DNA of 64,000 bases from Variovorax beijingensis (GTDB lineage Bacteria > Pseudomonadota > Gammaproteobacteria > Burkholderiales > Burkholderiaceae_C). The position numbers and the translations under genes were made by a program. The DNA is taken from assembly GCF_007828835.1 (NCBI RefSeq), contig NZ_VIVL01000001.1, positions 310,001-374,000 of the forward strand, given 5' to 3'. The notes beneath the pieces were generated by a model that saw nothing but the letters and a program-made list of their open reading frames with translations, was not told the DNA's origin and ran no database searches. Of the stretch, positions 772 to 21,105 are shown in pieces (position 1 is the stretch's first letter; each line of letters begins with the position of its first letter).

Positions 772-844
772 TTTCACAGTCGATCCGATGAACCCCGAAC
801 ATGGCGCCGGCGCTCTCCCGCCGGGCCTGAAAAAGGAACGCGAC

Positions 845-1636: not shown

Positions 1637-1724
1637 ACCTGGCGCCGCGCGCGGCGCCCGCGTTCTTCCGTTCCCGTTTCCTCGTCCCCACCCGCTCGCA
1701 CAGAGCCACAAGGAGTTTCCGCAC

Positions 1725-3293
1725 ATGAAACGTCGCAACCTCATCCAGATGGGCGCCGCCTCGGCCGCCGGATTGACGCTGGCGGGTGTCCCGCTGCATT
1801 TGCTGGCGCAGGGCAAGAAAGGCGGCGTCATCAACGCCGTCGTGCAGCCCGAGCCGCCGGGGCTGATGCTGGGCATCACGCAGAACGGCCCCACGCAGAT
1901 GATCTCGGGCAACATCTACGAAGGCCTGCTGCGCTACGACGAGAAGATCAACCCGCTGCCCTCGCTGGCCACCTCGTGGACCGTCAACAAGGAAGGCACG
2001 CTCTACACCTTCAAGCTCAAGCCCGGCGTCACCTGGCATGACGGCAAGCCTTTCACCTCGGCCGACGTGGTGTTCTCGGCCGACGTGTTCCTGCGCAAGA
2101 CGCATGCGCGCCTGCGCGCCAACCTAGCGTCGGTGGAGAGCATCAAGGCCATCGATCCGCTCACGGTCGAGTTCAAGCTCAAGTACCCCTTCGGTCCGTT
2201 CATCGGCATCTTCGAGGTCGGCAGCATGCCGATGATCCCGAAGCACATCTACGAAGGCACCGACTTCGCGACCAACCCGGCCAACGCCACGCCCATCGGC
2301 ACCGGGCCGTTCAAGTTCAAGGAATGGGTCAAGGGCTCGTACATCCAGCTCGTGGCCAACGACAAATACCACGTCAAGGACGTGCCGCTGGTCGAGAGTG
2401 TGTACTTCCACGTGATTCCCGACGCGGCCTCGCGCGCGGCGGCCTTCGAGTCGGGCAAGGTCGACCTGGTGCCGGGCGGCGCGGTCGAATACTTCGACGT
2501 GCTGCGGCTTTCCAAGCTGCCGGGCGCGGCGGTCACCACCAAGGGCTGGGAGTTCTTTGCGCCCCATTCGTGGCTGTGGCTCAACAACCGCAAGGCGCCG
2601 ATGGACAAGGTCAAGTTCCGCCAGGCCGTGATGTACGCGATCGACCGCGAGGCCATGGCCAAGATCGCCTGGCAGGGCTTCGCCAAGCCGGCGACCGGGC
2701 CGTTCAACAGCAACATCAAGTTCCACAGCACCGACGTCGCCAAGTACCCGCGCAACGTGGCCACCGCCAAGAAGCTGCTGGAAGAAGCCGGCTACAAGGG
2801 CGAGACGCTGCGCCTGCTGCCGCTGCCCTATGGCGAGACCTGGGCGCGCTCGGCCGAGATCCTGCGCCAGAACCTCGCGCAGGCCGGCATCAAGGTCGAG
2901 CTGGTGGCCACCGACGTGGCCGGCTGGAACCAGAAGCTCAACGAGTGGGACTACGATCTCGCCTTCACCTACGTCTACCAGTACGGCGACCCGGCGCTGG
3001 GCGTGGCGCGCAACTACACCACCAGCAATATCGCCAAGGGCTCGCCCTTCAACAACGTCGAGGGCTACTCGAACCCGAAGGTGGACGAGCTGTTCGACGC
3101 CGGCGCGAAGGAGAGCGACCCCGAGAAGCGCAAGGCCATCTACCTGCAGGTGCAGAAGATCCTGCTCGACGAAGTGCCCGTCGCCTGGCTGCACGAGCTC
3201 AACTTTCCGACGCTGTACCGTACCAAGCTGAACAACATCATCAGCTCGGGCATCGGCCTGAACGACAGCCTCGGTACGGCAACGCTCGCATGA
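1725..3293 (+). CDS. ABC transporter substrate-binding protein, family 5 (peptide/opine type)
   Basis: This 522-residue periplasmic solute-binding protein is of the DppA/OppA family. The N-terminus carries a twin-arginine-like signal (KRRNLIQ followed by a hydrophobic stretch to about residue 29). The body has the typical segments of the family, including the motif around WHDGKPFTSADVVFS and the lobe II region with the AIDREAM segment. It is followed at 37 bp by matching permease genes, so the system is complete. Substrates of the family include di- and oligopeptides, opines and nickel; the deacetylases and aminotransferases downstream suggest a peptide- or amide-like compound. Confidence 0.93.
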   Translation: MKRRNLIQMGAASAAGLTLAGVPLHLLAQGKKGGVINAVVQPEPPGLMLGITQNGPTQMISGNIYEGLLRYDEKINPLPSLATSWTVNKEGTLYTFKLKPGVTWHDGKPFTSADVVFSADVFLRKTHARLRANLASVESIKAIDPLTVEFKLKYPFGPFIGIFEVGSMPMIPKHIYEGTDFATNPANATPIGTGPFKFKEWVKGSYIQLVANDKYHVKDVPLVESVYFHVIPDAASRAAAFESGKVDLVPGGAVEYFDVLRLSKLPGAAVTTKGWEFFAPHSWLWLNNRKAPMDKVKFRQAVMYAIDREAMAKIAWQGFAKPATGPFNSNIKFHSTDVAKYPRNVATAKKLLEEAGYKGETLRLLPLPYGETWARSAEILRQNLAQAGIKVELVATDVAGWNQKLNEWDYDLAFTYVYQYGDPALGVARNYTTSNIAKGSPFNNVEGYSNPKVDELFDAGAKESDPEKRKAIYLQVQKILLDEVPVAWLHELNFPTLYRTKLNNIISSGIGLNDSLGTATLA

Positions 3294-3330
3294 CGGCCAG
3301 CCTGCGCACGCCACCTCACAGGAGCCGCCG

Positions 3331-4302
3331 ATGAAACGTACGCAGTTCATGCTGGGCCGCGTGATGCAGGGCCTGCTGGCGATCCTGCTGATCGCCACGG
3401 TCAACTTCATGCTGGTGCGCGCCGCGCCGGGTGATCCGGTGTCGGTGCTGGCGGGCGAGGCGGGCGCGTCCGATCCGCAGTTCGTGGCGCAGCTGCGCGC
3501 GCAGTTCGGGCTCGACCAGCCGATCACCACGCAGCTCGCCACCTACGTCGGCAAGGTAGTGCAACTCGACCTGGGCTTCTCGTACCGGCAGCAGCAGCCG
3601 GTGCTGAAGCTCATCATGGACCGGCTGCCCGCCACGCTGCTGCTCACGGGCACGGCGTTCGCGCTGTCGCTGCTGTTCGGCATCACGCTGGGCGCGCTCG
3701 CCGCGCGGCGGGCCGGCACCTGGGTCGACAGCTCGATCACTGTGGTGGCGCTCATCTTCTATGCCACGCCGCTCTACTGGCTCGCGCTGATGGCGGTGCT
3801 GGTGTTCACGGTGCAGCTCGACTGGCTGCCGGGCTTCGGCTTCAGCACCGTGGGCTCCGGCGCCACCGGCCTGGCGCTGGCCTGGGACATCGCGGGCCAT
3901 CTGGTGCTGCCGGCGCTGACGCTCGCGCTCTTCTACATGGCGGTGTATGCGCGCATGACGCGCGCCGCCATGCTCGAGGTGGCGCAGATGGACTTCGTGA
4001 AGACCGCCCGCGCCAAGGGCGTGAAGCCCGGGCGCATTTTGCGCGCGCACGTGCTGCGCAACGCACTGCTGCCGGTGGTCACGCTCGCGGGCATCCAGGC
4101 CGGCGGAATGATCGGCGGCGCGGTGCTGACCGAGACCGTGTTCGCCTGGCCCGGCATCGGCCGCCTGATGTTCGACGCGCTGCTGCAGCGCGACTACAAC
4201 CTGCTGCTCGGCGCCTTCCTCGTGACCGCGGCCATGGCCGTGTTGTTCAACCTCATCACCGACCTCGTCTACACGCTGGTCGATCCCCGCATCGAGCTAT
4301 GA
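3331..4302 (+). CDS. ABC transporter permease, DppB type
   Basis: This 323-residue inner-membrane permease of the peptide/nickel transport family has about six membrane segments. The N-terminal helix carries the typical VNFMLVRAAPGDP segment, and the conserved cytoplasmic loop that contacts the ATPase lies around residues 215-235 (KTARAKGV). Its stop overlaps the start of the next permease by four bases (ATGA), indicating translational coupling. Confidence 0.94.
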   Translation: MKRTQFMLGRVMQGLLAILLIATVNFMLVRAAPGDPVSVLAGEAGASDPQFVAQLRAQFGLDQPITTQLATYVGKVVQLDLGFSYRQQQPVLKLIMDRLPATLLLTGTAFALSLLFGITLGALAARRAGTWVDSSITVVALIFYATPLYWLALMAVLVFTVQLDWLPGFGFSTVGSGATGLALAWDIAGHLVLPALTLALFYMAVYARMTRAAMLEVAQMDFVKTARAKGVKPGRILRAHVLRNALLPVVTLAGIQAGGMIGGAVLTETVFAWPGIGRLMFDALLQRDYNLLLGAFLVTAAMAVLFNLITDLVYTLVDPRIEL

Positions 4303-5150
4303 CCCTGCTGCAAAGTCCATTCTGGCGGCGCTTCTGCCGCAACAAGGGCGCCGTGCTCGGCATGGCCGTGCTGGTGCTGGTGGCCGTCGTCGCCATCATC
4401 GGCCCATGGGTCGCGACCAACGATCCATGGAACATGGTCGAACAGCCGTTCCTGCGGCCGTGGACCGAGCCCGGCTTCGCGCTCGGCACCGACACGCTGG
4501 GCCGCGACATCCTCTCGGGCGTGATTTACGGCGCGCGCATCTCGCTCCTGATCGGGCTGGTGTCGACCGTGGTGGCGCTGCTGATCGGCGTGACGCTCGG
4601 CGCCATTGCGGGCTACTTCGGCGGCTGGATCGACGCGGCGCTGATGCGCTTCACCGAGCTGTTCCAGGCCGTGCCGAGCTTCGCGCTCGCCATCGTGCTG
4701 GTGGCGATCTTCCAGCCCTCGGTCAATTCGATCGTAGTGGCCATTGCCATCGTCTCGTGGCCGCCGGTGGCGCGGCTGGTGCGCAGCGAGTTCCTCACGC
4801 TGCGCCAGCGCGACTTCGTGCAGGCCGCGCTGCTCGCGGGCCAGTCGACGCCGCGCATCATCCTCACGCAGATCCTGCCCAACGCCATGTCGCCGATCAT
4901 CGTGATGGCCTCGCTCATGACGGCCACGGCCATCCTGCTGGAGTCGAGCCTGAGCTTCCTCGGCCTGGGCGATCCGAACCAGATGAGCTGGGGCTATATG
5001 GTGGGCGCGGCGCGCACCGTGCTGCGCCAGGCCTGGTGGATGGCGCTGTTCCCGGGCCTGGCCATCGTGCTGACCGTGCTCGCGCTCAACCTGGTGGGCG
5101 AGGGTCTCAGCGACGGGCTCAACACGCGGCTCGACGGGAGGGGCAAATGA
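4299..5150 (+). CDS. ABC transporter permease, DppC type
   Basis: This 283-residue second permease of the peptide-type transporter starts with the short cytoplasmic segment and first membrane helix typical of DppC. The periplasmic LGTDTLGRDILS motif of this family is present near residue 65, and the coupling loop follows near residue 170 (DFVQAALLAGQS). Four-base overlaps with both neighbours place it in one tightly coupled operon. Confidence 0.94.
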   Translation: MTLLQSPFWRRFCRNKGAVLGMAVLVLVAVVAIIGPWVATNDPWNMVEQPFLRPWTEPGFALGTDTLGRDILSGVIYGARISLLIGLVSTVVALLIGVTLGAIAGYFGGWIDAALMRFTELFQAVPSFALAIVLVAIFQPSVNSIVVAIAIVSWPPVARLVRSEFLTLRQRDFVQAALLAGQSTPRIILTQILPNAMSPIIVMASLMTATAILLESSLSFLGLGDPNQMSWGYMVGAARTVLRQAWWMALFPGLAIVLTVLALNLVGEGLSDGLNTRLDGRGK

Positions 5151-6805
5151 GCGCCACCGTCACGCCCATGAAGCCGGTGCAGCCGGTGCTCGACGTCGTC
5201 GGCCTGGGCATCCGCCTGCCCAGGGGCGCGGACCGCGCGCTGGCCGTCGACGGCGCCACGCTGTCGGTGCTGCCGGGGCAGACGCTGTGCGTGGTCGGCG
5301 AATCGGGCTCGGGCAAGTCGATGATCGCCAACGCCGTGATGGGCCTGCTGCCGCGCCCGCACGTCGAGCCCGTGGCGGGGCAGATCCTCTTCGAAGGCCG
5401 CGACCTGCTGCAGCTCAGCGAGCCGCAGATGCGCGAGCTGCGCGGCCGCCGCATCGGCATGGTGTTCCAGGAGCCGATGACGGCGCTGAACCCGGTCATG
5501 CGCATCGGCGAGCAGATCGGCGAAGTCTTCGACGCGCACGGCAGCGTGCCCGCGGCCAAGAAGCGGCGGCGCATCCTGGCCGCGCTGGCCGACGTGGGCC
5601 TGCCCGATCCGGAGCTGCTGATCGACGCCTATCCGTTCCGCCTCTCGGGCGGCCAGCGCCAGCGCGTGATGATCGCCTGCGCACTGGTGCTGGAGCCCGT
5701 GCTGCTGATTGCCGACGAGCCGACCACCGCGCTCGACGTGACCACGCAGGCGCAGATCCTCGCGCTGATCCGCGAGCTGCAGCAGCGCCGCGGCACGGCG
5801 GTGCTGTTCATCACGCACGACTTCGGCGTGGTGTCCGAAATTGCCGACCATGTGGTCGTGATGCAGACCGGCAAGGTGGTCGAGGCCGGGCCGGTGCGCC
5901 AGGTGCTCGATGCGCCGCAGCACCCGTACACGCGCAAGCTCATCGCAGCCATTCCCACCGGCAATGCCGAGCGCGACACGCCCACGGGCGAAGTCACGCG
6001 CGTGCTGCAGGTGCAGGACCTGTGCAAGACCTACACCTCGGGCAACGGCCTCTTCAAGCGCGGCCGCTCGGTGCAGGCCGCGAAGAACGTCAGCTTCGAG
6101 CTGCGCCGCGGCGAAACGCTGGGGCTGGTCGGCGAATCGGGCTCGGGCAAGTCGAGCGTGGGCCGCTGCCTGGTGGGGCTCTCGCCGTTCGACAGCGGCC
6201 GCATCCTCTTCAAGGGCCGCAGCCTGTCGCAGGGCCCCGCCTTCCGGCGCGAGGCCGCGGGCAGGATACAGATGGTGTTCCAGGACCCGTACGCCTCGCT
6301 GAACCCGCGCCACCGCGTGGGCGCGGCCATCGCGGGCGGGCCGATCGCGCAGGGCGTGGGCAAGGCCGAAGCCATGGCGCGCGCGATGGAGCTGCTCAAG
6401 CTCGTCGGCCTGGGCGCCGACGCGGCCGAGCGCTATCCGCACGAGTTCTCGGGCGGGCAGCGCCAGCGCATCGGCATTGCCCGCGCGCTCGCCATGCAGC
6501 CCGAACTGCTGGTGGCCGACGAGCCGGTGTCGGCGCTCGACGTGTCGGTGCAGGCGCAGGTGCTCGAACTCTTCGCGCAGGTGCGCGAGCAGTTCCAGCT
6601 CGCGATGGTCTTCATCACGCACGACCTGCGCGTGGCCGGCCAGATGTGCGACCACATCGCGGTGATGCAGCGCGGCGAAGTCGTCGAATACGGCGAGACG
6701 CACAAGGTGCTCGGCGATCCGAAGCATGCCTACACGCGCAAGCTGATCGAGGCGGTGCCGCGGCTGGTGTCCGCCGCGTCGCCGGCCGAGGCGCTGGTCG
6801 CGTGA
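5147..6805 (+). CDS. Peptide-type ABC transporter double ATPase (DppD-DppF fusion)
   Basis: This 552-residue protein has two complete ATP-binding cassettes in one chain. Walker A motifs (GESGSGKS) lie near residues 51 and 329. Each half has its own signature (LSGGQRQR and FSGGQRQR) followed by a Walker B ending in ADEP. The oligopeptide-type C-terminal extension of each half (HPYTRKLI and HAYTRKLI) is visible. Such fused ATPases are common in proteobacterial peptide and glutathione importers. The start at 5147 overlaps the permease stop. The protein would energise transport through the two permeases just upstream. Confidence 0.95.
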
Positions 6806-7767
6806 TGGCGCTGAACGACAAAGGCGGCACGCCTTGCGTGGCGATTCTGAGCGAGGTGCTGGACATGGAATACCTCGCCGCGGCCTTCCGCGAGGCCCAT
6901 CCCGGCATCGACCTGCGCCTGGGCGAAGAGCTCGGCGCGCTCGACCAGATCGAAGCGGCCGTGTGCTGGTTTCCGCCGCACGGCCTGCTCGCCCGGATGC
7001 CGAAGCTGCGGCTCGTGCAGTCGCTGGCCGCGGGCATCGAGCACATCACGGCCGACGCGGAACTGCCGCGCCAGGTGCCGCTGTGCCGCATCGTCGACAC
7101 CGGCATGGCGGCCGGCATGAAGGCTTATGTCTGCTGGGCCGTGGTGCAGCAGCATCGCGGCATGCGGGCCTACGTCGCGAGTTCCGCCGCCCGCCGGTGG
7201 GAGGAGCAGCCGATCGTGTCGCCGCGCCACCATCGCGTGGGCATTGCCGGCCTGGGCACCTTGGGCATGGCCTGCGCCGAAGCGCTGGCCGCCATCGGCT
7301 ACCCGGTGCGCGGCTGGAGCCGCAGCGCGAAAGAGGCCTTGCCGGCCGGCGTCGAGGGCTTCCACGGCGCCGCGCAGCTCGACGAATTCCTCTCGGGCTG
7401 CGACACGCTGGTGTGCCTGCTGCCGCTGACCGCAGAGACGCACGGCTTTCTCGATGCCGCGCTGTTCGCCAAGCTGCCGCGCGGCGCGCACCTGGTCAAC
7501 GTCGGCCGCGGTGACCACCTGGTCGAGGCCGACCTGCAGCCGGCGCTCGACGCGGGCCAGCTCTCGGCGGCCACGCTCGATGCCTTTTCGCAAGAGCCGC
7601 TGCCGCCGGAGCATCCGTTCTGGGGCGACCCGCGCATTCTCGTCACGCCGCACATCGCCACGCGCACCGACAGCCTCGTGATCGCCCGCCAGACGCTCGA
7701 CAACCTCGCGTCGCTGCGGCAAGGCCGCCGGCCCGCCAACCAGGTCGACCTGGCGCGCGGCTATTGA
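6805..7767 (+). CDS. D-2-hydroxyacid dehydrogenase (glyoxylate/hydroxypyruvate reductase A-like)
   Basis: This 320-residue NAD(P)-dependent oxidoreductase is of the GhrA-like branch. The nucleotide-binding motif GLGTLG lies near residue 149. The catalytic Arg (NVGRGDH), Glu (SQEPLPP) and His (TPHIATRTD) follow in the expected order. The start codon shares its first base with the last base of the ATPase stop. GhrA-type enzymes reduce glyoxylate, hydroxypyruvate and other small 2-oxo acids; in this cluster it may handle an oxo-acid made by the aminotransferases. Confidence 0.88.
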   Translation: MALNDKGGTPCVAILSEVLDMEYLAAAFREAHPGIDLRLGEELGALDQIEAAVCWFPPHGLLARMPKLRLVQSLAAGIEHITADAELPRQVPLCRIVDTGMAAGMKAYVCWAVVQQHRGMRAYVASSAARRWEEQPIVSPRHHRVGIAGLGTLGMACAEALAAIGYPVRGWSRSAKEALPAGVEGFHGAAQLDEFLSGCDTLVCLLPLTAETHGFLDAALFAKLPRGAHLVNVGRGDHLVEADLQPALDAGQLSAATLDAFSQEPLPPEHPFWGDPRILVTPHIATRTDSLVIARQTLDNLASLRQGRRPANQVDLARGY

Positions 7768-7793
7768 ACTCCCCACAAACCGGAACCGACTTC

Positions 7794-9164
7794 ATGAACG
7801 CCAGCACGCACGCGGAGAACGCCGCCAACGACATCGCCGCGCATCTCCATCCCTTCACCAACCTCGCGACCCATCCGCAGCTCGGCCCGCTGGTGATCCA
7901 GCGCGGCGACGGCATCTTCGTGGAGGACGACCAGGGCCGCCGCTATCTCGAAGCAATGTCGGGCTTGTGGTGCGCCTCGCTGGGCTTCAGCAACGCACGC
8001 CTGGCCAAGGCCGGCAGCGAGGCGCTGCACGGGCTGCCGTACTACCACACGTTCAACGGCCGCTCCAATCCGGCCGCGATCGCGCTGGCCGAAAAGCTCT
8101 TGTCGCTGGCGCCGGTGCCGATGTCCAAGGTGTTCTTCGCCAACTCGGGTTCGGAGGCCAACGACTCCGCGGTCAAGCTGGTCTGGTACTACCACAACGC
8201 CATCGGCAAGCCTGAAAAGAAGAAGATCATCGCGCGCCGCAACGCCTACCACGGCGTCACCGTCGCGGCCGCGAGCCTGAGCGGCCTGGTGCCGAACCAC
8301 CGCGACTTCGACCTGCCGATCGACCGCATCCTGCACGTCGACTGCCCGCACCATTTCCGCTACGCCGAGGCCGGCGAGAGCGAGCAAGACTTCGCGACGC
8401 GGCTGGCCGCTGCGCTCGAGCAGCGCATCCTCGACGAAGGCCCCGAGACGGTCGGCGCCTTCATCGCCGAACCCGTGATGGGCGCGGGCGGCGTGCTGGT
8501 GCCGCCGGCCACCTACTTCGACAAGGTCCAGAAGGTGCTCGCGAAATACGAGGTGCTGCTGATTGCCGACGAGGTGATCTGCGGCTTCGGCCGCACCGGC
8601 CAGATGTTCGGCTCCACCACCTTCGGCCTCAGGCCCGACATCCTGACCGCGGCCAAGGCGCTGTCCTCGGGCTACGTGCCGATCTCGGCCGTGATGGTCA
8701 GCGAGAAAGTGCATGCGGCGGTGGCCGCCAACAGCGGAAAGATCGGCACCTTCGGCCACGGCTTCACCTACTCGGGCCATCCGGTGGCCTGCGCCATCGC
8801 GCTCGAGACGCTCAAGGTCTACGAGGACGAGAACATCCTCGCGCACGTCCAGTCGCTGGTGCCGCAATTCCAGAAGGGGCTGCAGAGCCACGCCGCGCGC
8901 AAATACGTCGGCGAGGTGCGCGGCGTGGGGCTCATCGGCGCCATCGAGCTGTATGCCGATCCCGCGAAGCGCACGCCCTTCGATCCCGCGCAGAAGGCCG
9001 GCGCCCGCCTGGCCGAGCTCGCACTGGCGCAGGGGCTCATCGTGCGCGCGATGGGCGATTCCATTGCCTTCTGCCCGCCGCTCATCATCACGGCCGGACA
9101 GATCGACGACATGTTCGCGCGCTTCGGCCGCGCCATGGCAATCTTCGAGGAAAGCTTCGCGTGA
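7794..9164 (+). CDS. Class III aminotransferase (omega-amine/diamine:pyruvate type)
   Basis: This is a PLP-dependent aminotransferase of about 456 residues. The Schiff-base lysine is in AAKALSSGY (about residue 288), the DEVICGFGRTG motif holds the cofactor-binding Asp, and SGSEAND is the phosphate-binding segment. The layout resembles SpuC-type putrescine/polyamine:pyruvate and omega-amino acid:pyruvate aminotransferases. ATG at 7794 was preferred over the upstream TTG at 7764. It precedes a deacetylase of the acetylpolyamine type with a four-base overlap, which fits a route for acylated amines, but the substrate is not proven. Confidence 0.9.
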   Translation: MNASTHAENAANDIAAHLHPFTNLATHPQLGPLVIQRGDGIFVEDDQGRRYLEAMSGLWCASLGFSNARLAKAGSEALHGLPYYHTFNGRSNPAAIALAEKLLSLAPVPMSKVFFANSGSEANDSAVKLVWYYHNAIGKPEKKKIIARRNAYHGVTVAAASLSGLVPNHRDFDLPIDRILHVDCPHHFRYAEAGESEQDFATRLAAALEQRILDEGPETVGAFIAEPVMGAGGVLVPPATYFDKVQKVLAKYEVLLIADEVICGFGRTGQMFGSTTFGLRPDILTAAKALSSGYVPISAVMVSEKVHAAVAANSGKIGTFGHGFTYSGHPVACAIALETLKVYEDENILAHVQSLVPQFQKGLQSHAARKYVGEVRGVGLIGAIELYADPAKRTPFDPAQKAGARLAELALAQGLIVRAMGDSIAFCPPLIITAGQIDDMFARFGRAMAIFEESFA

Positions 9165-10219
9165 AGGTCTTCTTCACCGACGAGCAGCTGCTGCACGATC
9201 CGCAGCAGTTCATGCGGCTGGGCCGCCTCTGCAAGCCGACCGACCTGCCAAGCCGCGCGCATGCGCTGCGCGACGCGCTGGCCCTGCGCGGCATTGCGCT
9301 GGCCGAGCCGCGGGACTATGGCCGCGCGCCGCTCGAAGCCGTGCACAGCGCCGACTACCTCGACTACCTCGAAACCGCCTACGCGCTGTGGCGCGAACTG
9401 AAGGTGCCCGGCGTGGAGCCCGGCATCGAGGTGCTGCCGAATCTTTCGCCGTACTACAACGGCACGCCGGGCGTGGCGCGCGCGCCCTGTCCTTCGCCCT
9501 CGCTGGTGGCGCGCACGGGCTACTACATCAGCGACCTCTCGTGCCCGCTCGGCCCGCACACCTGGCGCTCGATACTGCGCTCGGCCCATACCGCGGTGGC
9601 CGCCGCGGATGCGGTGCTGGAAAGCGGCGACGCGGCCTACGCGCTGTGCCGCCCTTCGGGCCATCACGCGCACCGCGACCGCGCGGGAGGCTTCTGCTAC
9701 ATCAACAACAGCGCCATCGCGGCAGAGCGGCTGTGCGGGCGGCACGGCCGCGTGGCGGTGTTCGACGTCGATGCGCACCACGGCGACGGCACGCAGAACA
9801 TCTTCTATGCGCGCGGCGACGTGCTGACCGTGTCGACGCATGCCGATCCCTCGGGCTACTACCCGTTCTACACCGGCTACGCGCACGAGCGCGGCACGGG
9901 CGCGGGCGAAGGCTTCAACCTGAACCTGCCGCTTGCGCACGGCGCGGACAACGCGGCGTTCCTGCAGGCGGTGGATGAAGGCGCGGCCGCGCTGCGCGAA
10001 TTCGCGCCCAAGGCGCTGGTGCTCGCGCTCGGCTTCGACAGCTACAAGGACGACCCCATCAGCGTGCTCAAGCTCGACCTCGACGCCTACCGCCACATCG
10101 GCGAGCGCGTCGGCGCGCTGAAGCTGCCCACGGTGATCGTGCAGGAAGGCGGCTACATGGTCGAGGCCATCGGCCCCGCGCTCGACAACTTCCTGCGGGG
10201 CTTCCAGGCCGCGCGATGA
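9161..10219 (+). CDS. Histone-deacetylase-fold amidohydrolase (acetylpolyamine amidohydrolase-like), copy 1
   Basis: This 352-residue arginase/deacetylase-fold zinc hydrolase starts with GTG overlapping the aminotransferase stop. The paired catalytic histidines are in RPSGHHAH, zinc ligands are in DVDAHHGDGTQ and in GFDSYKDDP, and the transition-state Tyr is in EGGY. The length and the insert between residues 80 and 125 resemble bacterial acetylpolyamine amidohydrolases, which remove acetyl groups from small amines. It is a paralogue of the protein at 11933-12961, within the same cluster. Confidence 0.88.
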   Translation: MKVFFTDEQLLHDPQQFMRLGRLCKPTDLPSRAHALRDALALRGIALAEPRDYGRAPLEAVHSADYLDYLETAYALWRELKVPGVEPGIEVLPNLSPYYNGTPGVARAPCPSPSLVARTGYYISDLSCPLGPHTWRSILRSAHTAVAAADAVLESGDAAYALCRPSGHHAHRDRAGGFCYINNSAIAAERLCGRHGRVAVFDVDAHHGDGTQNIFYARGDVLTVSTHADPSGYYPFYTGYAHERGTGAGEGFNLNLPLAHGADNAAFLQAVDEGAAALREFAPKALVLALGFDSYKDDPISVLKLDLDAYRHIGERVGALKLPTVIVQEGGYMVEAIGPALDNFLRGFQAAR

Positions 10220-11142
10220 GCACCGCCGCCACGGCTCTCTCATTGCGTCCGGCGGGCTCCAGGCGCGCCGGCGTGGCGCTGTTCTTCTGCGCGCTGGTGG
10301 CCTTTGCCTCCTACGACGCGTTCTGCAAGTACATGCTGCAGTTCTACCCGGCGCCCTTCGTCAACGTGATGCGCTATGTCGCGGTGAGCGGCATTGCCTT
10401 CGCGATGCTGCTGCGCCATGGCGACCTGCGCATGTGGCGCACGCCGCACAAGCCCCTGCTGCTGCTGCGCGGCCTGATGCTCGCGACGGTGGCCACCTGC
10501 TTCATGACCGCGCTGATCTGGATGCCGCTGGCCGAGGCCACGGCCATCTACTTCACCGCGCCGCTCCTGATGGTGGCGCTGTCGCCGTGGCTGCTGGGCG
10601 AGCAGGTGCGGCGCAGCCGCTGGGTGGCGGTGACGGTCGGCTTCGGCGGCATGCTGCTGATCGTGCGGCCGGGGGCCGACCTGCCGCTGCTCGGCACGGT
10701 GCTGATGGCCGTGGCCGCCGTCTGCTACGCCATCTTCCAGCTGCTCACGCGGCGGCTCGCGGGCCTGGTCGCGGGGCCGGTGCAGTACGCCTGGACCGCG
10801 CTGGCCTGCTTCGTCGTCACGCTGCTGCCTGCGCCCTTCTTCCTGCCGGCCCAGCAGCCGCCCTGGGGCGACGTGGCGCTGCTGCTCGCGGGCGGCGCCT
10901 GCAGCGCGGCGGCGCAATGGCTGCTGCTGGCCGCTTTCGAGCGCGTGGAGGCCTCGACGCTCGCGCCGCTCAACTACTTCCAGCTGCTGCTGGCCGTGGC
11001 CTTCAGCACCTTCTGGTTCCGCCGGCCGCCCGACGCGATCGCGATGGCCGGCATCGCGCTGATCATGGCTGCGGGCATCTACCTGGCGCGCGCGGGGCGG
11101 GGCCTGAAGAGCGCACCGGCCGCGCCGGACGCCATCCGGTGA
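10216..11142 (+). CDS. EamA/DMT family transporter
   Basis: This 308-residue integral membrane protein has about ten hydrophobic segments in two EamA repeats. This is the drug/metabolite transporter family, whose members mostly export amino acids and small metabolites. It overlaps the upstream deacetylase by four bases. Its place in a catabolic operon suggests a role in moving the substrate or an intermediate; the direction of transport cannot be read from the sequence. Confidence 0.88.
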   Translation: MSTAATALSLRPAGSRRAGVALFFCALVAFASYDAFCKYMLQFYPAPFVNVMRYVAVSGIAFAMLLRHGDLRMWRTPHKPLLLLRGLMLATVATCFMTALIWMPLAEATAIYFTAPLLMVALSPWLLGEQVRRSRWVAVTVGFGGMLLIVRPGADLPLLGTVLMAVAAVCYAIFQLLTRRLAGLVAGPVQYAWTALACFVVTLLPAPFFLPAQQPPWGDVALLLAGGACSAAAQWLLLAAFERVEASTLAPLNYFQLLLAVAFSTFWFRRPPDAIAMAGIALIMAAGIYLARAGRGLKSAPAAPDAIR

Positions 11143-11185
11143 AGAATCGCCCCTGGCGCAGCATCCCAATGACGAGACAAGCAAC

Positions 11186-11914: not shown

Positions 11915-11932
11915 GACCGGAGAGACACACCG

Positions 11933-12961
11933 ATGAAAGTCGTCTACAGCGATACCCACAAGGACCACGACCCGCAGCTCTTCATGGTGCGCGGCAAGCT
12001 CAAGCGCAGCAACGAGCAGCCCGAGCGTGCATTCCGCCTGCTCGAGGCGGTGCAGCAGGAAGGCCACGAGATCGTCGCCACGCGCGACTTCGGCGCCGGC
12101 CCGCGCGCCGCCATCCACACGCCCGAGTACCTGCGCTTCCTCGAAACCGCCTACGCGCGCTGGCAGCTGCTGGACGACCCGTCGGAAGAAGTGATGCCCA
12201 ACATCCACCCCTTCCCGGGCCAGCCCTGCACCTACCCCGACAGCGTGGTCGGCCAGGCCGGCTTCCACATGGGCGACAACGCCTGCTCCATCGGCGCGCG
12301 CACCTGGGAGGCCGCCATCGCCTCGGCGAACATGGCCACGCATGCGGCGCAGCTCGTGCTCGGTGGCGAGCGCGCGGCCTATGCGCTGTGCCGGCCGCCC
12401 GGCCACCACGCGTACGCCGACCGCGCCAATGGCTTCTGCTACCTCAACAACGTGGCCATTGCCGCGCAGCACCTGCGCGGCGTGCACGACCGCGTGGCCA
12501 TCCTCGACATCGACGTGCACCACGGCAATGGCACGCAGGGGATCTTCTACCGCCGCGCCGACGTGCTGACCATCTCGCTGCACGGCGACCCGCGCAACTT
12601 CACGCCCTTCTTCATCGGCCACGCGCACGAGCGCGGCGAAGGCGAAGGCCTGGGCTACAACATCAACAAGCCGCTGCCGCTGGGCACTGACATCGACGGC
12701 TACCTGCCCGCGCTGCGCGATGCCTGCGACAGCATCCGTGCCTATGCGCCCGACGCACTCGTGGTGGCGCTGGGGCTCGACGCGCACGAGCGCGATCCCT
12801 ACAAGGGCATGAAGATCCAGACCGCCGGCTTCGCCGTGCTGCTGGCCGAGATCGCGCGCCTGGGGCTGCCCACGGTGCTGGTGCAGGAAGGCGGCTACCT
12901 TTCCGACGACCTGGGGCCGAACATTGCGAGTGCGCTGCGCGGTTTCGAGAGCGTCGCATGA
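11933..12961 (+). CDS. Histone-deacetylase-fold amidohydrolase (acetylpolyamine amidohydrolase-like), copy 2
   Basis: This 342-residue protein is close in length to characterised acetylpolyamine amidohydrolases. Catalytic histidines are in RPPGHHAY, zinc ligands in DIDVHHGNGTQ and in GLDAHERDP, and the Tyr in EGGY. It shares the N-terminal layout of the paralogue at 9161-10219 (a short strand, then DPQ and an R-G-K/R-L segment), so the two arose by duplication or parallel recruitment. It overlaps the kinase downstream by four bases, which links deacetylation to phosphorylation in one pathway. Confidence 0.9.
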   Translation: MKVVYSDTHKDHDPQLFMVRGKLKRSNEQPERAFRLLEAVQQEGHEIVATRDFGAGPRAAIHTPEYLRFLETAYARWQLLDDPSEEVMPNIHPFPGQPCTYPDSVVGQAGFHMGDNACSIGARTWEAAIASANMATHAAQLVLGGERAAYALCRPPGHHAYADRANGFCYLNNVAIAAQHLRGVHDRVAILDIDVHHGNGTQGIFYRRADVLTISLHGDPRNFTPFFIGHAHERGEGEGLGYNINKPLPLGTDIDGYLPALRDACDSIRAYAPDALVVALGLDAHERDPYKGMKIQTAGFAVLLAEIARLGLPTVLVQEGGYLSDDLGPNIASALRGFESVA

Positions 12962-14013
12962 CGAATGCAGAGTTCGCCGACGCGCAGGTGCTCAGCGAAG
13001 CCTCGCCCGCGCTCGACGACGCCTGGGTGCGCGAGCTCGCGCGCGAGCGCTACGGCATCGAAGGCGAGATGAAGCCGCTGACCGGCGAGCGTGACCGCAA
13101 CTACCGGCTCGAGCGCGCCACCGACGGCGCCCGCTTCATGCTGAAGATCTCGCACCCGGCCGAGACCGCGCTGGTCGCCGACTTCCAGACCCAGGCCCTG
13201 CTGCACCTCGCGACCACCGACCCCGGCCTGCCGGTGCAGCGCATCGTGCCGACGCGCGAGGGCGCCGCCTCCTTCATCTGCGACCCGGGCGACGGCCTGC
13301 CGCGCGTGGTGCGCCTCTTCAGCTACCTGCCCGGCCTGCCGCTGCCCGAGGCGCCGCGCACGCCGCGGCAGCAGCAGAACCTCGCGCGCATGCTGGCCCG
13401 GCTCGACCTCGCGCTCGCGGGCTTCGAGCACCCGGCCGGCGAGCTGCCGCTGCCCTGGGACCTGCAGCGCGCCGACAGCGTGCGCGGCCTGCTCGCGCAC
13501 ATCGCCGAGCCGGAGCGCCGCGCGCTGGCCGCCGCCGCGCTCGACCGTTTCGAGCGCGATGCCAGGCCGGTGCTGCGCACGCTGCCCGCGCAGCCGATCC
13601 ACAACGACTTCAACATCTACAACCTGCTGGTCGACCCGGCCGACACCGACCGCATCGCCGCGATCCTCGACTTCGGCGACATGGTGCGCGCGCCGTGCAT
13701 CAACGACCTGGCCGTGGCCGCCGCCTACCAGGCCGGCACGGGCGACGATCCGCTCGCGGCCATCGTGCCGCTGGTCGCCGCGTACCACGCGGTGCGGCCG
13801 CTGTCGACGGCCGAGGCCGGCGTGCTGTTCGACCTGATCACGGCGCGGCTCGTGATGGTGGTGGCCATCAGCGGCTGGCGCGCCGCGCGCTATCCCGAGA
13901 ACGCGCCCTACCTGCTGCGCAACAACCCGCTGTCGTGGGCGCGGCTGCAGGCCTGCGAGCGCGTCGGCAGTGCCGCGGCGACAGCAGCCTTTCGCCGCGC
14001 GCTGAAGCTCTGA
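12958..14013 (+). CDS. APH-fold small-molecule kinase, hydroxylysine-kinase-like
   Basis: This 351-residue aminoglycoside-phosphotransferase-fold kinase has an early GERDRNYR segment, the ATP-binding lysine in MLKIS, a catalytic loop HNDFNIYN (His about residue 215) and the metal-binding Asp in ILDFGDM (about residue 238). The ERDRN and ILDFGDM motifs resemble hydroxylysine kinase (HYKK/AGPHD1). The usual HGD of the catalytic loop is HND here. It is followed 10 bp later by a phospho-lyase-like class III enzyme, the natural partner of such kinases. An amino alcohol or hydroxylated amino acid is the likely substrate, by inference. Confidence 0.82.
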   Translation: MTNAEFADAQVLSEASPALDDAWVRELARERYGIEGEMKPLTGERDRNYRLERATDGARFMLKISHPAETALVADFQTQALLHLATTDPGLPVQRIVPTREGAASFICDPGDGLPRVVRLFSYLPGLPLPEAPRTPRQQQNLARMLARLDLALAGFEHPAGELPLPWDLQRADSVRGLLAHIAEPERRALAAAALDRFERDARPVLRTLPAQPIHNDFNIYNLLVDPADTDRIAAILDFGDMVRAPCINDLAVAAAYQAGTGDDPLAAIVPLVAAYHAVRPLSTAEAGVLFDLITARLVMVVAISGWRAARYPENAPYLLRNNPLSWARLQACERVGSAAATAAFRRALKL

Positions 14014-14023
14014 GAGACCGCCC

Positions 14024-15307
14024 ATGACTTCCCTCGCCCCTTCGACCCAGGCCCTCGTCGAGCGTCGCGCGCGCGTGCTCGGCCCGGCCTACCGCCTGTT
14101 CTACGACACGCCGCTGCACCCGGTGCGCGGCGAAGGCGTGTGGCTGTACGACGCCGAGGGCCGGCCCCATCTCGACGCCTACAACAACGTCGCCTCCGTC
14201 GGCCATTGCCATCCGCACGTGGTCGAGGCCATCGCGCGCCAGGCCGGCGTGCTCAACACCCACACGCGCTACCTGCACGAGGGCGTGCTCGACTACGCCG
14301 AGCGGCTGCTCGCCACCCTGCCGGCCGAACTCGCGCACGCGATGTTCACCTGCACCGGCAGCGAGGCCAATGATTTGGCGATGCGCATCGCACGCGCGCA
14401 CACCAAGGCCGAGGGGCTGATCGTCACGCGCTTCGCGTACCACGGCGTCACCGCGTCGATTGCCGAGGCCTCGCCTTCGCTCGGCAAGTTCGTGCAGCTT
14501 GGCGACGCAGTGCGCACCGTGCCCGCGCCCGACAGCTACCGCATCGCGCCCGGCGAGCTGGGCCGCGCGTTCGCGAACGGCGTGCGCGAGGCCATCACCG
14601 ACCTCAAGGCGCAGGGCATGCGCCCGGCCGCCCTGATGGTCGACACCGTGTTCTCGAGCGACGGCATCTTCACCGACCCGCCCGGCTTCATGGCCGAGGC
14701 GGTGGACGCGGTGCGCGAGGCCGGCGGCCTCTTCATCGCCGACGAAGTGCAGCCCGGCCTCGGCCGCACCGGCGACGCGTTCTGGGGCTTCCAGCGGCAT
14801 GGCGTGGTGCCCGACATCGTCACCATGGGCAAGCCGCTCGGCGCCGGCCATCCGCTGGCCGGCCTTGCGGTGCGGCCCGGGGTGCTGGCCGCCTTCGGCC
14901 GCGAGTGCCGCTACTTCAACACCTTCGGCGGCAACCCGGTCTCGATGGCCGCGGGCATGGCGGTGCTCGACGTGATCGAGCGCGAAGGCCTGATGGCCAA
15001 CGCGCAGCGCGTCGGCCGTTACCTGCGTGCGCAGATCGCGAAGCTCGCCGAGCGCCATGCGCTGATCGGCGACGTGCGCGGCGCGGGCCTGTTCGTGGGC
15101 GTGGAGCTCGTCACGGACCGCCGCGTCCGCACGCCCGCCACCGCGGAAACCGCGCGCATCGTCAACGGCCTGCGCGAGAGGCAGGTGCTGCTGAGCGCCA
15201 CCGGCGAACATGCCAGCACGCTCAAGATCCGCCCGCCGCTGGTGTTTTCCGAAGCCCATGCCGACCTGCTGGTCGAGACGCTGGACCAGGTGCTGGCCGG
15301 CCTCTGA
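14024..15307 (+). CDS. Class III PLP enzyme, phospho-lyase type (hydroxylysine/ethanolamine-phosphate phospho-lyase-like)
   Basis: This 427-residue class III PLP enzyme has its Schiff-base lysine in [11 protein letters not shown] (about residue 270). That motif, the [11 protein letters not shown] segment and the C-terminal VLLSATGEH...LKIRPP segment are the pattern of the AGXT2L1/AGXT2L2 phospho-lyases rather than of ordinary aminotransferases. Those enzymes eliminate phosphate and ammonia from phosphoethanolamine or 5-phosphohydroxylysine to give an aldehyde. Together with the kinase immediately upstream it forms a complete two-step route. The exact substrate is inferred, not shown. Confidence 0.83.
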
Positions 15308-15371
15308 CCGATCGCATGGCGCCGATCGCCGCCTTGCGCCAGAATCGTTCGCCCCCACGACCCTTGCCATC

Positions 15372-16577
15372 ATGAACATCGTCGATTCCTTTGCCGCCCA
15401 CGCCTCCCGCTTCGTCGACATCCGGCGCGACATCCACGCCCATCCCGAACTCGGCTTCGAGGAGCACCGCACTTCCGAAAAGGTGGCGGGCCTGCTTGCC
15501 GAATGGGGCATCGAGGTGCACCGCGGCATTGCCGGCACCGGCCTGGTCGGCGTGCTGCGCAAGGGCACCGGCACGCGCACCATCGGCCTGCGCGCCGACA
15601 TGGATGCGCTGCCGCTGCACGAGGCCAACGAGTTCGCCCACAAGTCCACCCATGCCGGCCGCATGCACGCCTGCGGCCACGACGGCCACACCACCATGCT
15701 GCTGGCCGCCGCCTGGCACCTGTCGCAGCAGGGGCCCGACGACTTCGACGGCACCGTGCATTTCATCTTCCAGCCGGCCGAGGAGATGGGCAAGGCCGGT
15801 GCGAAGAAGATGATCCAGGACGGCCTGTTCGAGCGCTTCCCGTGCGACGCGGTCTTTGCGCTGCACAACTTTCCCGTCGGCGACGTGGGCCGCTTCGCGC
15901 TCAACGAAGGCGCGCTGATGGCGTCGAGCAACACCTACAGGATCACCATGCATGGGCGCGGCACGCATGCCTCGATGCCGCACACCGGCATCGACCCCGT
16001 GGCCGCGGTGGTCACGCTCGCGCAGCAGCTGCAGACCATCGTGCCGCGCACCATTCCGAGCACCGAGCGCGCCCTGCTTGCGGTCACGCAGCTGCAGGGC
16101 TCGGATGCGCCCAACGTGATTCCCGATGTGGCCACGGTCGGCGGCACCATCCGCACCTTCTCCATCGAGGCGATCGACAAGATCGAGGCGCGGCTGCGCG
16201 AAGTGGCGGCCGGCGTGGCCGCCGCGCACGGCTGCACGGCCGAGGTTTTCTTCAACCGTTCCTCGCCGCCGGTGGTCAACCACCCGGCCGAGGCGCGCTT
16301 TGCCGCCAGCGTGATGCGCGAGGTGGTGGGCGACGGCATGGTCACCGACAACTTCCCTGCCGTGATGGGCGCCGAGGACTTCGCCCACATGCTGCTCGCG
16401 CGGCCCGGCTGCTATGCGTTCCTGGGCAATGGCGACGGCGACCACCGGCTCGACGGCCACGGGCCCGGCCCTTGCATCATCCACAACACCTCGTTCGACT
16501 TCAACGACGAGATCATTCCGATCGGCGCCAGCTACTTCGTGAAGCTGGTGCAGCGCTGGCTGCCGTCGGGCGGCTGA
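15372..16577 (+). CDS. M20 family metallo-amidohydrolase (hippurate hydrolase/aminoacylase-like)
   Basis: This is a 401-residue M20D-type peptidase/amidohydrolase. Metal ligands are visible in ACGHDGHTT and in the QPAEEMGKAG segment, with the late histidine near the C-terminus. A dimerisation insert follows near residues 185-290. ATG at 15372 gives the usual family length and the typical N-terminus ending in HAHPELGFEE. Members deacylate N-acyl amino acids. It sits 64 bp after the phospho-lyase gene and 27 bp before a Bug protein, and extends the amide-hydrolysis theme of the cluster. Confidence 0.92.
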   Translation: MNIVDSFAAHASRFVDIRRDIHAHPELGFEEHRTSEKVAGLLAEWGIEVHRGIAGTGLVGVLRKGTGTRTIGLRADMDALPLHEANEFAHKSTHAGRMHACGHDGHTTMLLAAAWHLSQQGPDDFDGTVHFIFQPAEEMGKAGAKKMIQDGLFERFPCDAVFALHNFPVGDVGRFALNEGALMASSNTYRITMHGRGTHASMPHTGIDPVAAVVTLAQQLQTIVPRTIPSTERALLAVTQLQGSDAPNVIPDVATVGGTIRTFSIEAIDKIEARLREVAAGVAAAHGCTAEVFFNRSSPPVVNHPAEARFAASVMREVVGDGMVTDNFPAVMGAEDFAHMLLARPGCYAFLGNGDGDHRLDGHGPGPCIIHNTSFDFNDEIIPIGASYFVKLVQRWLPSGG

Positions 16578-16604
16578 GCGAAGAAGTTTTCCACTGCAAC
16601 GACG

Positions 16605-17600
16605 ATGATGAAAGCGGCCAACCCGATGACCTCCACCCTGTTCACCCGGCGTTCGCTCGCTGCCCTTGCAGCCGCCGCGGCACTCGGCGCCCTTGCGCCC
16701 GTGCACGCGCAGCAGCGCGTGATCCACATCGTCGTGCCCTTCGGCACGGGCGCGGTGCAGGACACGGTGGCGCGCGCCTTCAACGCCGAACTGGGCGCGG
16801 CGCTCAACGCCAGCGCCATCGTCGAGAACCGCGCGGGCGCGGGCGGCACGGTGGGCGCGGCGGCGGTGGCCAAGGCGCCGCCGGACGGCAACACGCTGGT
16901 GCTCGCGGCCGCGAGCCACAACATCGCGGGCTTCCTGTACAGCAAGCTGTCGTACGACCCGCTGAAGGATTTCGTCGGCGTGGCCAACATCGGCAACGCG
17001 GGCTACGCGCTGGCGGTCTCGAGCGGGCTCAACGTGTCGAACACGGCGGACTTCATCAAGGAGGTCAAGGCCAATCCGGGCAAGTACAACTACGCCTCGG
17101 CCGGCAACGGCAGCGCCACGCACCTGGCGATGGCGTCGTTCCTCGCCAAGGCCGGGCTGCAGATGACGCACATCCCGACCAAGTCGACCGGCGAGGCCGT
17201 CAACGAGGTGCTCGCGGGCCGCGTGCAGGCCGTGATCTCGTCGAGCATCGGCGTGATGGGTTTCCAGGCCGATCCGCGCATGAAGCTGCTCGCCTCCACC
17301 GGCCAGGCGCGCAGCCCGTTCCTGCCCAGCCTGCCGACGGTGGTCGAGAGCGGCCTGCCGGGCTACGCCTTCGATTCATGGATCGGCCTGCTCGCGCCGG
17401 CGGGCACGCCCAAGGCCGAGGTCGAGCGCCTCAACGCGGCCACCAACAAGGTGCTGTCCGATCCGGCGATCCAGGAGCGCTTCAAGCGCCTGGGCGTGGA
17501 GCCGCGCACGCAAAGCGCCGAGGAGTTCCAGAAGCTGCTGCGTGCCGATTGGGATGCGATGGGCGCGGTGGTGAAGGCTTCGGGGGCGAAGATCGACTGA
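16605..17600 (+). CDS. Bug family tripartite tricarboxylate transporter substrate-binding protein
   Basis: This 331-residue periplasmic binding protein has a signal peptide with an RRS motif ending at AHAQQ-like residues near position 35. The Bug-typical IVVPFGTGA segment and the ENRAGAGGT motif follow. An alternative start is the in-frame ATG at 16626. No TctA or TctB membrane subunits are nearby, as is common for the many orphan Bug proteins in Burkholderiales. The ligand is probably a carboxylate linked to this cluster. Confidence 0.92.
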   Translation: MMKAANPMTSTLFTRRSLAALAAAAALGALAPVHAQQRVIHIVVPFGTGAVQDTVARAFNAELGAALNASAIVENRAGAGGTVGAAAVAKAPPDGNTLVLAAASHNIAGFLYSKLSYDPLKDFVGVANIGNAGYALAVSSGLNVSNTADFIKEVKANPGKYNYASAGNGSATHLAMASFLAKAGLQMTHIPTKSTGEAVNEVLAGRVQAVISSSIGVMGFQADPRMKLLASTGQARSPFLPSLPTVVESGLPGYAFDSWIGLLAPAGTPKAEVERLNAATNKVLSDPAIQERFKRLGVEPRTQSAEEFQKLLRADWDAMGAVVKASGAKID

Positions 17601-18961: not shown

Positions 18962-18998
18962 TAACCGCTCTTTTCATTGTTCCAACCCAGGAAGAAGC

Positions 18999-20141: not shown

Positions 20142-20155
20142 ACGGACGCCGCCGC

Positions 20156-21094: not shown

Positions 21095-21105
21095 CGCCGG
21101 CCGGC

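What the first reader, a model, noticed from the sequence alone, without database searches (positions are those of the whole stretch)
12958..15307. Kinase plus phospho-lyase pair resembling the hydroxylysine degradation route
A hydroxylysine-kinase-like APH-fold protein is followed by a class III PLP enzyme whose motifs ([31 protein letters not shown]) match the vertebrate phospho-lyases AGXT2L1/AGXT2L2 rather than aminotransferases. Kinase and phospho-lyase act in sequence in animals on hydroxylysine or ethanolamine phosphate. In bacteria few such pairs have an assigned substrate. The catalytic loop HND instead of HGD in the kinase is unusual.
Basis: partly seen in the sequence, partly recalled or inferred. 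Interest (0 to 1): 0.72.

Follow-up and report, generated by a model that had tools for sequence, protein, structure and literature searches.

The report
Deacetylase, kinase, phospho-lyase amino-alcohol operon
A soil-type bacterium carries a gene cluster that probably imports an acetylated amino alcohol, strips off the acetyl group, adds a phosphate and then splits off phosphate and ammonia to leave an aldehyde it can eat; the enzyme pair is of a known kind, but its coupling to deacetylases and an importer looks new.

Summary
The two genes are real, at the stated coordinates. The PLP enzyme belongs to the phospho-lyases, not to ordinary aminotransferases (381 and 377 bits to two solved phospho-lyases, 203 to the next). 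The kinase is an APH-fold protein; its HND loop is the norm in its family (70 of 76). Kinase-lyase pairs are common in Pseudomonadota. What is new is the setting: an operon with an Opp-type importer and two HDAC-fold amidohydrolases, one overlapping the kinase gene. Among the 80 related loci kept, the 12 with such a deacetylase are exactly the 12 with the orthologous importer, and they fall in several PLP lineages. In 25 same-genus genomes, orthologues of deacetylase, kinase, lyase and importer protein are all present (10) or all absent (14), apart from one fragmented assembly. I read it as deacylation, phosphorylation, then phospho-elimination of an N-acetylated vicinal amino alcohol. The substrate is open: both deacetylases keep the catalytic residues but lack the acidic polyamine-binding residue, so 5-hydroxylysine stays possible. 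The one tested kinase of the permease-linked (ethanolamine-type) loci belongs to another family. Against a dedicated system: in a phylum-wide sample 65 of 71 matches to deacetylase 2 are not within 30 kb of a lyase match.

The parts
788..1636 (+). class II aldolase/adducin-like protein (PRK07044 family); first gene of the run
   Evidence: PF00596 175 bits; PRK07044 352 bits over cut-off 207; relatives (57-69%) at the head of the same importer genes in Achromobacter aestuarii, Bradyrhizobium (2) and Halotalea
1725..3293 (+). solute-binding protein, SBP_bac_5 type
   Evidence: PF00496 291 bits; NCBIfam NikA/Opp/GsiB models all below cut-off; best PDB matches are peptide/nickel-type binding proteins
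3331..5150 (+). two Opp-type ABC permeases (3331-4302 and 4299-5150)
   Evidence: PF00528 162 and 107 bits, OppC_N in the second
5147..6805 (+). Opp-type ATPase with two ABC domains on one ORF
   Evidence: ABC_tran twice, oligo_HPY twice
6802..7767 (+). GhrA-like D-2-hydroxyacid dehydrogenase (GTG start at 6802)
   Evidence: PF02826 150 bits; GhrA model 208 bits, below its cut-off 403
7764..9164 (+). class III omega-aminotransferase (AT1); TTG start, an ATG at 7794 is an alternative
   Evidence: PRK06105 712 bits over cut-off 517, PRK07480 529 over 510; PDB 6tb1/6g4b 574 and 573 bits
9161..10219 (+). HDAC-fold amidohydrolase 1 (APAH-like, gatekeeper motif PIS)
   Evidence: PF00850 241 bits; best PDB 3men 331 bits; motif
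10216..11142 (+). EamA transporter
   Evidence: PF00892 89.5 bits
11186..11914 (+). GntR/FCD regulator
   Evidence: PF07729 and PF00392
11933..12961 (+). HDAC-fold amidohydrolase 2 (APAH-like, motif PYK instead of PIS); overlaps the kinase by 4 bases
   Evidence: PF00850 235 bits; best PDB 3men 310 bits, 9gkz 310 bits; overlap; motif
12958..14013 (+). APH-fold small-molecule kinase (finding)
   Evidence: PF01636 95 bits; N-terminal part of PRK06148, 289 bits, below that full-length model's cut-off; model pLDDT 94.5, Foldseek to homoserine kinase 2ppq and aminopropanol kinase 6ef6
14024..15307 (+). class III PLP phospho-lyase (finding)
   Evidence: PDB 6tor 381 bits, 5g4i 377, next 203; C-terminal part of PRK06148, 510 bits, below that full-length model's cut-off; tree
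15372..16577 (+). M20 amidohydrolase, 64 bases after the lyase
   Evidence: PF01546 147 bits; amidohydrolase model 352 bits over cut-off 154 (longer ORF); start and gap; 97-98% orthologue beside the pair in 3 of 8 same-genus loci
16605..17600 (+). TctC-type solute-binding protein, last gene of the close-packed run
   Evidence: PF03401 213 bits

Best explanation
A catabolic operon for an N-acetylated (or otherwise N-acylated) vicinal amino alcohol, R-CH(OH)-CH2-NH-acyl. Inferred steps: the Opp-type importer brings the compound in; an HDAC-fold amidohydrolase removes the acyl group; the APH-fold kinase phosphorylates the hydroxyl; the PLP phospho-lyase eliminates phosphate and ammonia to give R-CH2-CHO; host dehydrogenases and the omega-aminotransferase take it on. 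Shown: gene identities, operon layout, recurrent linkage. Inferred: every chemical step and the substrate. Substrates in my order of likelihood: an omega-amino-beta-hydroxy acid such as 5-hydroxylysine or 4-amino-3-hydroxybutyrate; a small amino alcohol such as ethanolamine or aminopropanol; the diamine 2-hydroxyputrescine.
For: PLP enzyme far closer to two solved phospho-lyases than to any other PDB protein; it and both references lie on one side of a tree rooted on AT1. A kinase in the locus with 103 of 111 PLP ORFs: 2 on one ORF with it, 89 within 200 bases on the same strand. One strand, gaps of at most 88 bases from 788 to 17600, seven 4-base overlaps, three of them resting on GTG or TTG starts; deacetylase 2 overlaps the ATG-started kinase. 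12 of 12 deacetylase-linked loci carry importer orthologues, 0 of 68 others do. On the PLP tree the deacetylase label needs 8 changes, 6 when two rows on short contigs are not counted. Own genome plus 24 of its genus: all four orthologues in 10, none in 14, lyase plus part of the kinase in 1 fragmented assembly. Zinc-site and catalytic residues intact in both deacetylases.
Against: Deacetylase 2 is not dedicated to the pair: of 71 matches in 398 Pseudomonadota genomes only 6 (four genomes, the window's included) lie within 30 kb of a PLP match at E<=1e-110; of the best 34, 3. The importer and deacetylase occur without kinase or lyase in 5 of 20 loci fetched around such matches, so the pair looks like an add-on. 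No PLP residue is shared by all five deacetylase-linked lineages and rare elsewhere (the rarest is still in 49% of other rows), so the lyase itself shows no special substrate. The aldolase and GhrA-like dehydrogenase have no assigned step.
Confidence: 0.55

Rival explanations
1. Hydroxylysine route proper: kinase and lyase act as in animals on 5-hydroxy-L-lysine, giving 2-aminoadipate semialdehyde; the deacetylases release it from N-acetyl-hydroxylysine; with the hydroxyproline genes next door this would be a collagen-degradation island.
For: 4-hydroxyproline epimerase at about 20156-21094 (548 bits over cut-off 442), a DHDPS-type enzyme at 18047-18961 and an FAD oxidoreductase start about 450 bases beyond the run. 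Deacetylase 2 lacks acidic polyamine-binding residue 106 and the PIS motif, which would suit a carboxylate-bearing substrate.
Against: The hydroxyproline block (all four genes) accompanies the pair in 3 of 8 same-genus loci with full flanks; the epimerase is in no other of the 112 fetched loci, some with cut flanks. No aminoadipate-semialdehyde dehydrogenase was recognised in the operon. HYKK and PHYKPL could not be compared.
Confidence: 0.25
2. Ethanolamine or 1-amino-2-propanol route, fed by N-acetyl or N-acyl derivatives.
For: Both solved close relatives of the lyase are phospho-lyases (6tor is the ethanolamine-phosphate enzyme). The only sequence match of the kinase in the PDB is 6ef6 (33.5 bits), titled aminopropanol kinase.
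Against: A separate kinase family, one member of which (L117) matches 6ef6 at 299 bits, sits in loci with amino acid permeases; the one from L123 scores 633 bits on the ethanolamine permease model (cut-off 382). The window's cluster has neither.
Confidence: 0.2
3. 2-Hydroxyputrescine route: acetyl-2-hydroxyputrescine to 4-aminobutanal, alongside acetyl-diamine to 4-aminobutanal by deacetylase 1 and AT1.
For: Both deacetylases are nearest to enzymes named acetylpolyamine amidohydrolases; deacetylase 1 keeps the PIS motif; AT1 belongs to omega-aminotransferases. 2-hydroxyputrescine is made by the betaproteobacterium Ralstonia pickettii (PMC7857480, passages seen).
Against: The acidic residue that binds the distal amine in Mycoplana APAH (Glu106) is Val in 19 of 20 linked deacetylase-2 rows (1 His) and in 10 of 15 linked deacetylase-1 rows (the rest Ile, Leu, Ala); acidic in none of the 35. 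The module also occurs in genera of Alphaproteobacteria.
Confidence: 0.15
4. The deacetylases and importer serve a different compound, and kinase and lyase merely share the operon.
For: Importer and deacetylase occur without the pair in 5 of 20 loci; 65 of 71 deacetylase-2 matches are not near a lyase match.
Against: 4-base overlap of deacetylase 2 and kinase; recurrent joining in several PLP lineages; presence and absence as a block within the genus.
Confidence: 0.2

Closest known systems
Human ETNPPL (PDB 6tor) and Arthrobacter aurescens phospholyase (PDB 5g4i; species name recalled)
   Same: Same PLP subfamily: 381 and 377 bits over nearly the full length, shared catalytic lysine and FNT(F/Y)xGN motif
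   Different: Neither is tied to a deacetylase or Opp importer as far as I recall; the window enzyme's substrate is untested
Animal hydroxylysine kinase (HYKK) plus PHYKPL
   Same: Order of reactions and protein families, as recalled from Veiga-da-Cunha et al. 2012 (seen only as a reference in PMC8154272; the paper itself is not held)
   Different: Not comparable here: sequences not found in the tools. Deacetylases and importer are extra
Mycobacterium aminoacetone-microcompartment (S)-1-amino-2-propanol kinase (PDB 6ef6; Mallette and Kimber 2018, seen only in a reference list)
   Same: APH fold; only PDB sequence match of the kinase; second Foldseek match
   Different: 23% identity in the Foldseek alignment; the permease-linked kinase L117 matches 6ef6 at 299 bits and belongs to another family
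Acetylpolyamine amidohydrolases (M. ramosa 3q9b, Marinobacter 6phr, Pseudomonas sp. 9gkz)
   Same: HDAC fold, zinc ligands and catalytic Tyr kept; 253 to 310 bits for deacetylase 2
   Different: All three lie across a long 100%-supported branch from both window deacetylases; acidic residue 106 lost, and in deacetylase 2 the PIS motif too

Membership tests
AGXT2L1/2-type PLP phospho-lyase | Closer to proven phospho-lyases than to aminotransferases | tested here: met
   381/377 bits against at most 203 for any other of 187 PDB matches
AGXT2L1/2-type PLP phospho-lyase | Tree placement with phospho-lyase references, apart from an omega-aminotransferase | tested here: met
   Quick IQ-TREE, 114 rows; both references inside the 113-row set, AT1 on a branch of length 10; long branches warned of. 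PHYKPL absent
AGXT2L1/2-type PLP phospho-lyase | Releases phosphate and ammonia from a phosphorylated amino alcohol | not testable with these tools
   needs purified enzyme
Hydroxylysine kinase (HYKK) family | APH fold with H-x-D-x4-N catalytic loop and a DFG-type Mg loop | tested here: met
   AlphaFold2 model pLDDT 94.5, Foldseek E 5e-14 to APH-fold kinases; H215, D217, N222, D238, F239, G240 invariant in 35 rows
Hydroxylysine kinase (HYKK) family | Orthology to animal HYKK | not tested
   no HYKK sequence at hand in the tools
Hydroxylysine kinase (HYKK) family | Phosphorylates 5-hydroxy-L-lysine | not testable with these tools
   needs assay
Acetylpolyamine amidohydrolase | HDAC fold with zinc ligands and catalytic Tyr | tested here: met
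   H159, D195, H197, D284 kept in all 35 linked rows; Y323 in 34, the other being a gap (M. ramosa numbering)
Acetylpolyamine amidohydrolase | PIS gatekeeper motif of bacterial polyamine deacetylases (PMC11532494, passages seen) | tested here: inconclusive
   window deacetylase 1 PIS, window deacetylase 2 PYK
Acetylpolyamine amidohydrolase | Acidic residue at 106 that salt-bridges the distal amine (M. ramosa; His in 9gkz) | tested here: not met
   Val in both window deacetylases (against 3q9b; against 6phr); acidic in 0 of 35 linked rows
Bacterial ethanolamine/aminopropanol kinase-lyase module | 6ef6-type kinase and amino acid/ethanolamine permease beside the lyase | tested here: not met
   kinase is of the other family, no such permease match in the cluster
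Class III aminotransferase (for the PLP enzyme) | Passes a curated aminotransferase model | tested here: not met
   none of the 25 models shown (of 69) reaches its cut-off; outside the kinase-fusion families PRK06148 and PRK06149 the best is 247 bits against 608

The most novel reading that the evidence does not exclude
An undescribed catabolic route in Proteobacteria in which HDAC-fold amidohydrolases unmask an N-acetylated hydroxy-amino acid or hydroxy-diamine, and a kinase and PLP phospho-lyase then remove hydroxyl and amine together as phosphate and ammonia; the pair was added more than once to an older importer-deacetylase operon.
Probability: 0.4. Interest if true: 0.65.

Novelty: new variant of a known kind. 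Interest (0 to 1): 0.5.

Why it matters
As far as I know, bacterial fates of hydroxylysine, 2-hydroxyputrescine and acetylated amino alcohols have few assigned genes. If the reading holds, one operon, present in named genera of Alpha-, Beta- and Gammaproteobacteria, gives a direct growth-and-assay test. It would also give bacterial HDAC-fold enzymes a catabolic role outside polyamines.

Tried and rejected
Collagen island (hydroxylysine beside hydroxyproline): attractive, but the hydroxyproline block sits beside the pair in only 3 of 8 same-genus loci and its epimerase in none of the other fetched loci. Kept as a rival.

HND as a special feature: rejected.

A private residue signature of deacetylase-linked lyases: looked for, none found.

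Deacetylase subfamilies dedicated to the pair: suggested by the first deacetylase tree, where 34 of 35 linked rows fell in two groups (linked loci had been chosen for linkage), then rejected for deacetylase 2 by the unselected phylum-wide search. Not tested for deacetylase 1.

Acetylpolyamine as substrate of both deacetylases: my early idea (note), weakened by loss of the acidic residue and by the neighbours of a deacetylase-2-like gene in L234.

Papers: searches, seen as listings with starts of abstracts. One search asked for papers with at least two of hydroxyputrescine, phospho-lyase, acetylpolyamine amidohydrolase and hydroxylysine kinase: 7 papers, none with the amidohydrolase or hydroxyputrescine. 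Only open-licence papers and exact phrases were searched. Passages were read in PMC8154272, PMC7857480, PMC11532494 and PMC8007038.

The solved binding-protein search gave no ligand hint. The roles of the aldolase and the GhrA-like dehydrogenase stayed unexplained.

On checking, I mended: the M20 start (15372, not 15384), the count of tree changes (two of the 8 come from rows on short contigs), and the pairing of deacetylase and lyase matches, now over all 71 and 59 rows.
Full report
OBSERVATION. Pfam gives APH (95 bits) and class III aminotransferase (244 bits). NCBIfam places them as the N- and C-terminal parts of one longer family, PRK06148 (289 and 510 bits, both below the cut-off for the full-length protein). 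The window lies in a 6.9 Mb genome. The first two matches of the named-genome search are Variovorax (83 and 86%).

THE PLP ENZYME IS A PHOSPHO-LYASE BY DESCENT. In the PDB the best two of 187 matches are human ethanolamine-phosphate phospho-lyase (6tor, 381 bits) and a bacterial phospholyase (5g4i, 377 bits); the next are racemases and a decarboxylase at about 202 bits. In a quick maximum-likelihood tree of 114 rows both references fall among the bacterial rows, while the window's own omega-aminotransferase is on a branch of length 10. The program warned of long branches, the two references among them. PHYKPL was not available.

THE KINASE IS ORDINARY FOR ITS FAMILY. The model (pLDDT 94.5) matches APH-fold kinases, best 2ppq and 6ef6. 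HND is found in 70 of 76 family members. The only PDB sequence match is 6ef6 (33.5 bits). A second kinase family is found in other lyase loci; its one member tested (L117) matches 6ef6 at 299 bits. That family sits in loci with amino acid permeases, of which the one in L123 scores 633 bits on the ethanolamine permease model (cut-off 382). So an ethanolamine/aminopropanol branch probably exists, and the window is not in it.

OPERON. From 788 to 17600 all genes are on the + strand with gaps of at most 88 bases (M20 start mended to 15372, gap 64). Seven junctions overlap by 4 bases; three of these (GhrA, AT1, deacetylase 1) rest on GTG or TTG starts. Contents: class II aldolase, Opp-type binding protein, two permeases, double ATPase, GhrA-like dehydrogenase, omega-aminotransferase, HDAC-fold amidohydrolase 1, EamA, GntR/FCD, HDAC-fold amidohydrolase 2, kinase, lyase, M20, TctC.

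LINKAGE. By blastp to window proteins, 12 of 80 loci hold a linked deacetylase: Variovorax, Acidovorax, Achromobacter aestuarii, Curvibacter, Microvirga (2), Paracidovorax, Pararhodobacter, Bradyrhizobium (2), Sulfitobacter, Halotalea. All 12, and none of the other 68, hold importer orthologues (Fisher p 1.7e-14, which ignores shared descent; some loci have cut flanks). On the lyase tree the deacetylase label needs 8 changes; two of these come from rows on short contigs (L072, L074), and without them 6 remain. Within the genus (own genome plus 24), orthologues of deacetylase 2 (>=75%), kinase (>=58%), lyase (>=71%) and binding protein (>=79%) are all present in 10 and all absent in 14; one fragmented assembly (630 contigs) has the lyase and part of the kinase on a 3.4 kb contig. 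Among the 14, one genome only 62% complete has a 58% binding-protein match, and one has a 122-residue kinase match at 57%. In Acidovorax kinase and lyase are one ORF (L076).

RESULTS AGAINST A DEDICATED SYSTEM. A first tree of 51 deacetylases put 34 of 35 linked ones in two groups, but the linked loci had been chosen by linkage. In 398 Pseudomonadota genomes, 6 of 71 matches to deacetylase 2, in four genomes including the window's, lie within 30 kb of a lyase match at E<=1e-110; of the 34 best, 3 do. Of 20 neighbourhoods fetched around such matches, 1 has kinase and lyase, 5 have the importer (4 of them with the aldolase) but no kinase or lyase, 9 have a class III aminotransferase near the deacetylase, and 5 have none of these close by (one has an aminotransferase 7.6 kb away; three of the 20 stretches are cut by a contig end). 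The kinase-lyase pair therefore looks like an add-on to an older import-and-deacetylate operon.

DEACETYLASE CHEMISTRY. Zinc ligands and catalytic residues are kept in both. Bacterial polyamine deacetylases are marked by a PIS motif, and M. ramosa Glu106 salt-bridges the substrate's distal amine (PMC11532494, passages). Deacetylase 1 has PIS; deacetylase 2 has PYK. Residue 106 is acidic in none of 35 linked rows. Residues 17 and 117, which I recall as further acidic contacts, are also neutral in the linked rows. In one Rhizobium-like locus examined by profile (L234) the deacetylase-2-like gene sits with a class III aminotransferase, a BKACE-type beta-keto acid cleavage enzyme and a GNAT acetyltransferase. 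This recalls aerobic beta-lysine breakdown, where, from memory, a 4-acetamidobutyrate deacetylase is needed. Both facts point away from polyamines and towards neutral or acidic acetamido compounds.

READING. The best-supported mechanism is import, deacylation, phosphorylation, phospho-elimination to an aldehyde. The substrate class (N-acyl vicinal amino alcohol) follows from the enzyme families; the exact compound does not. 5-Hydroxylysine stays open. The adjacent 4-hydroxyproline genes hint at collagen, but they sit beside the pair in only 3 of 8 same-genus loci, and the epimerase in no other fetched locus.

NOVELTY. The enzymes are known kinds; I found no description of their coupling in the open-licence papers searched. 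New variant of a known kind.

Noticed in passing
window 18047-22236: 4-Hydroxyproline degradation genes (DHDPS-type enzyme, LivK-type binding protein, epimerase about 20156-21094, FAD oxidoreductase) directly downstream; all four beside the pair in 3 of 8 same-genus loci.
   Followed up: partly
L234:6340-10430; aminotransferase near the deacetylase also in L230-L232 and L235-L239: Deacetylase-2-like genes of Rhizobium-like genomes near a class III aminotransferase; in L234 also with a BKACE enzyme (520 bits over cut-off 430) and a GNAT acetyltransferase: a candidate operon for beta-lysine-type breakdown, with an HDAC-fold enzyme as the acetamido-acid deacetylase.
   Followed up: partly
12 loci labelled HADLrp; L066, L118, L119, L131 have the fullest set: Another class of kinase-lyase locus, with a HAD-family protein and an Lrp regulator, in four loci also an ornithine-cyclodeaminase-like and a threonine-dehydratase-like gene; nearly one group on the tree; substrate unknown.
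   Followed up: no
L123:8682-12755 and L069, L110, L114, L117, L122, L127, L135, L150, L151, L153: Lyases in loci with a second, 6ef6-like kinase family and amino acid permeases; the permease of L123 scores 633 bits on the ethanolamine permease model.
   Followed up: partly
L076:8669-11302 and L070:9331-12486: Kinase and lyase on one ORF (877 and 1051 aa).
   Followed up: partly
L079:2358-4055, L088:3928-5760: A TPP enzyme of the PRK08199 subfamily beside deacetylase, kinase and lyase in Microvirga and Pararhodobacter; role unexplained.
   Followed up: no
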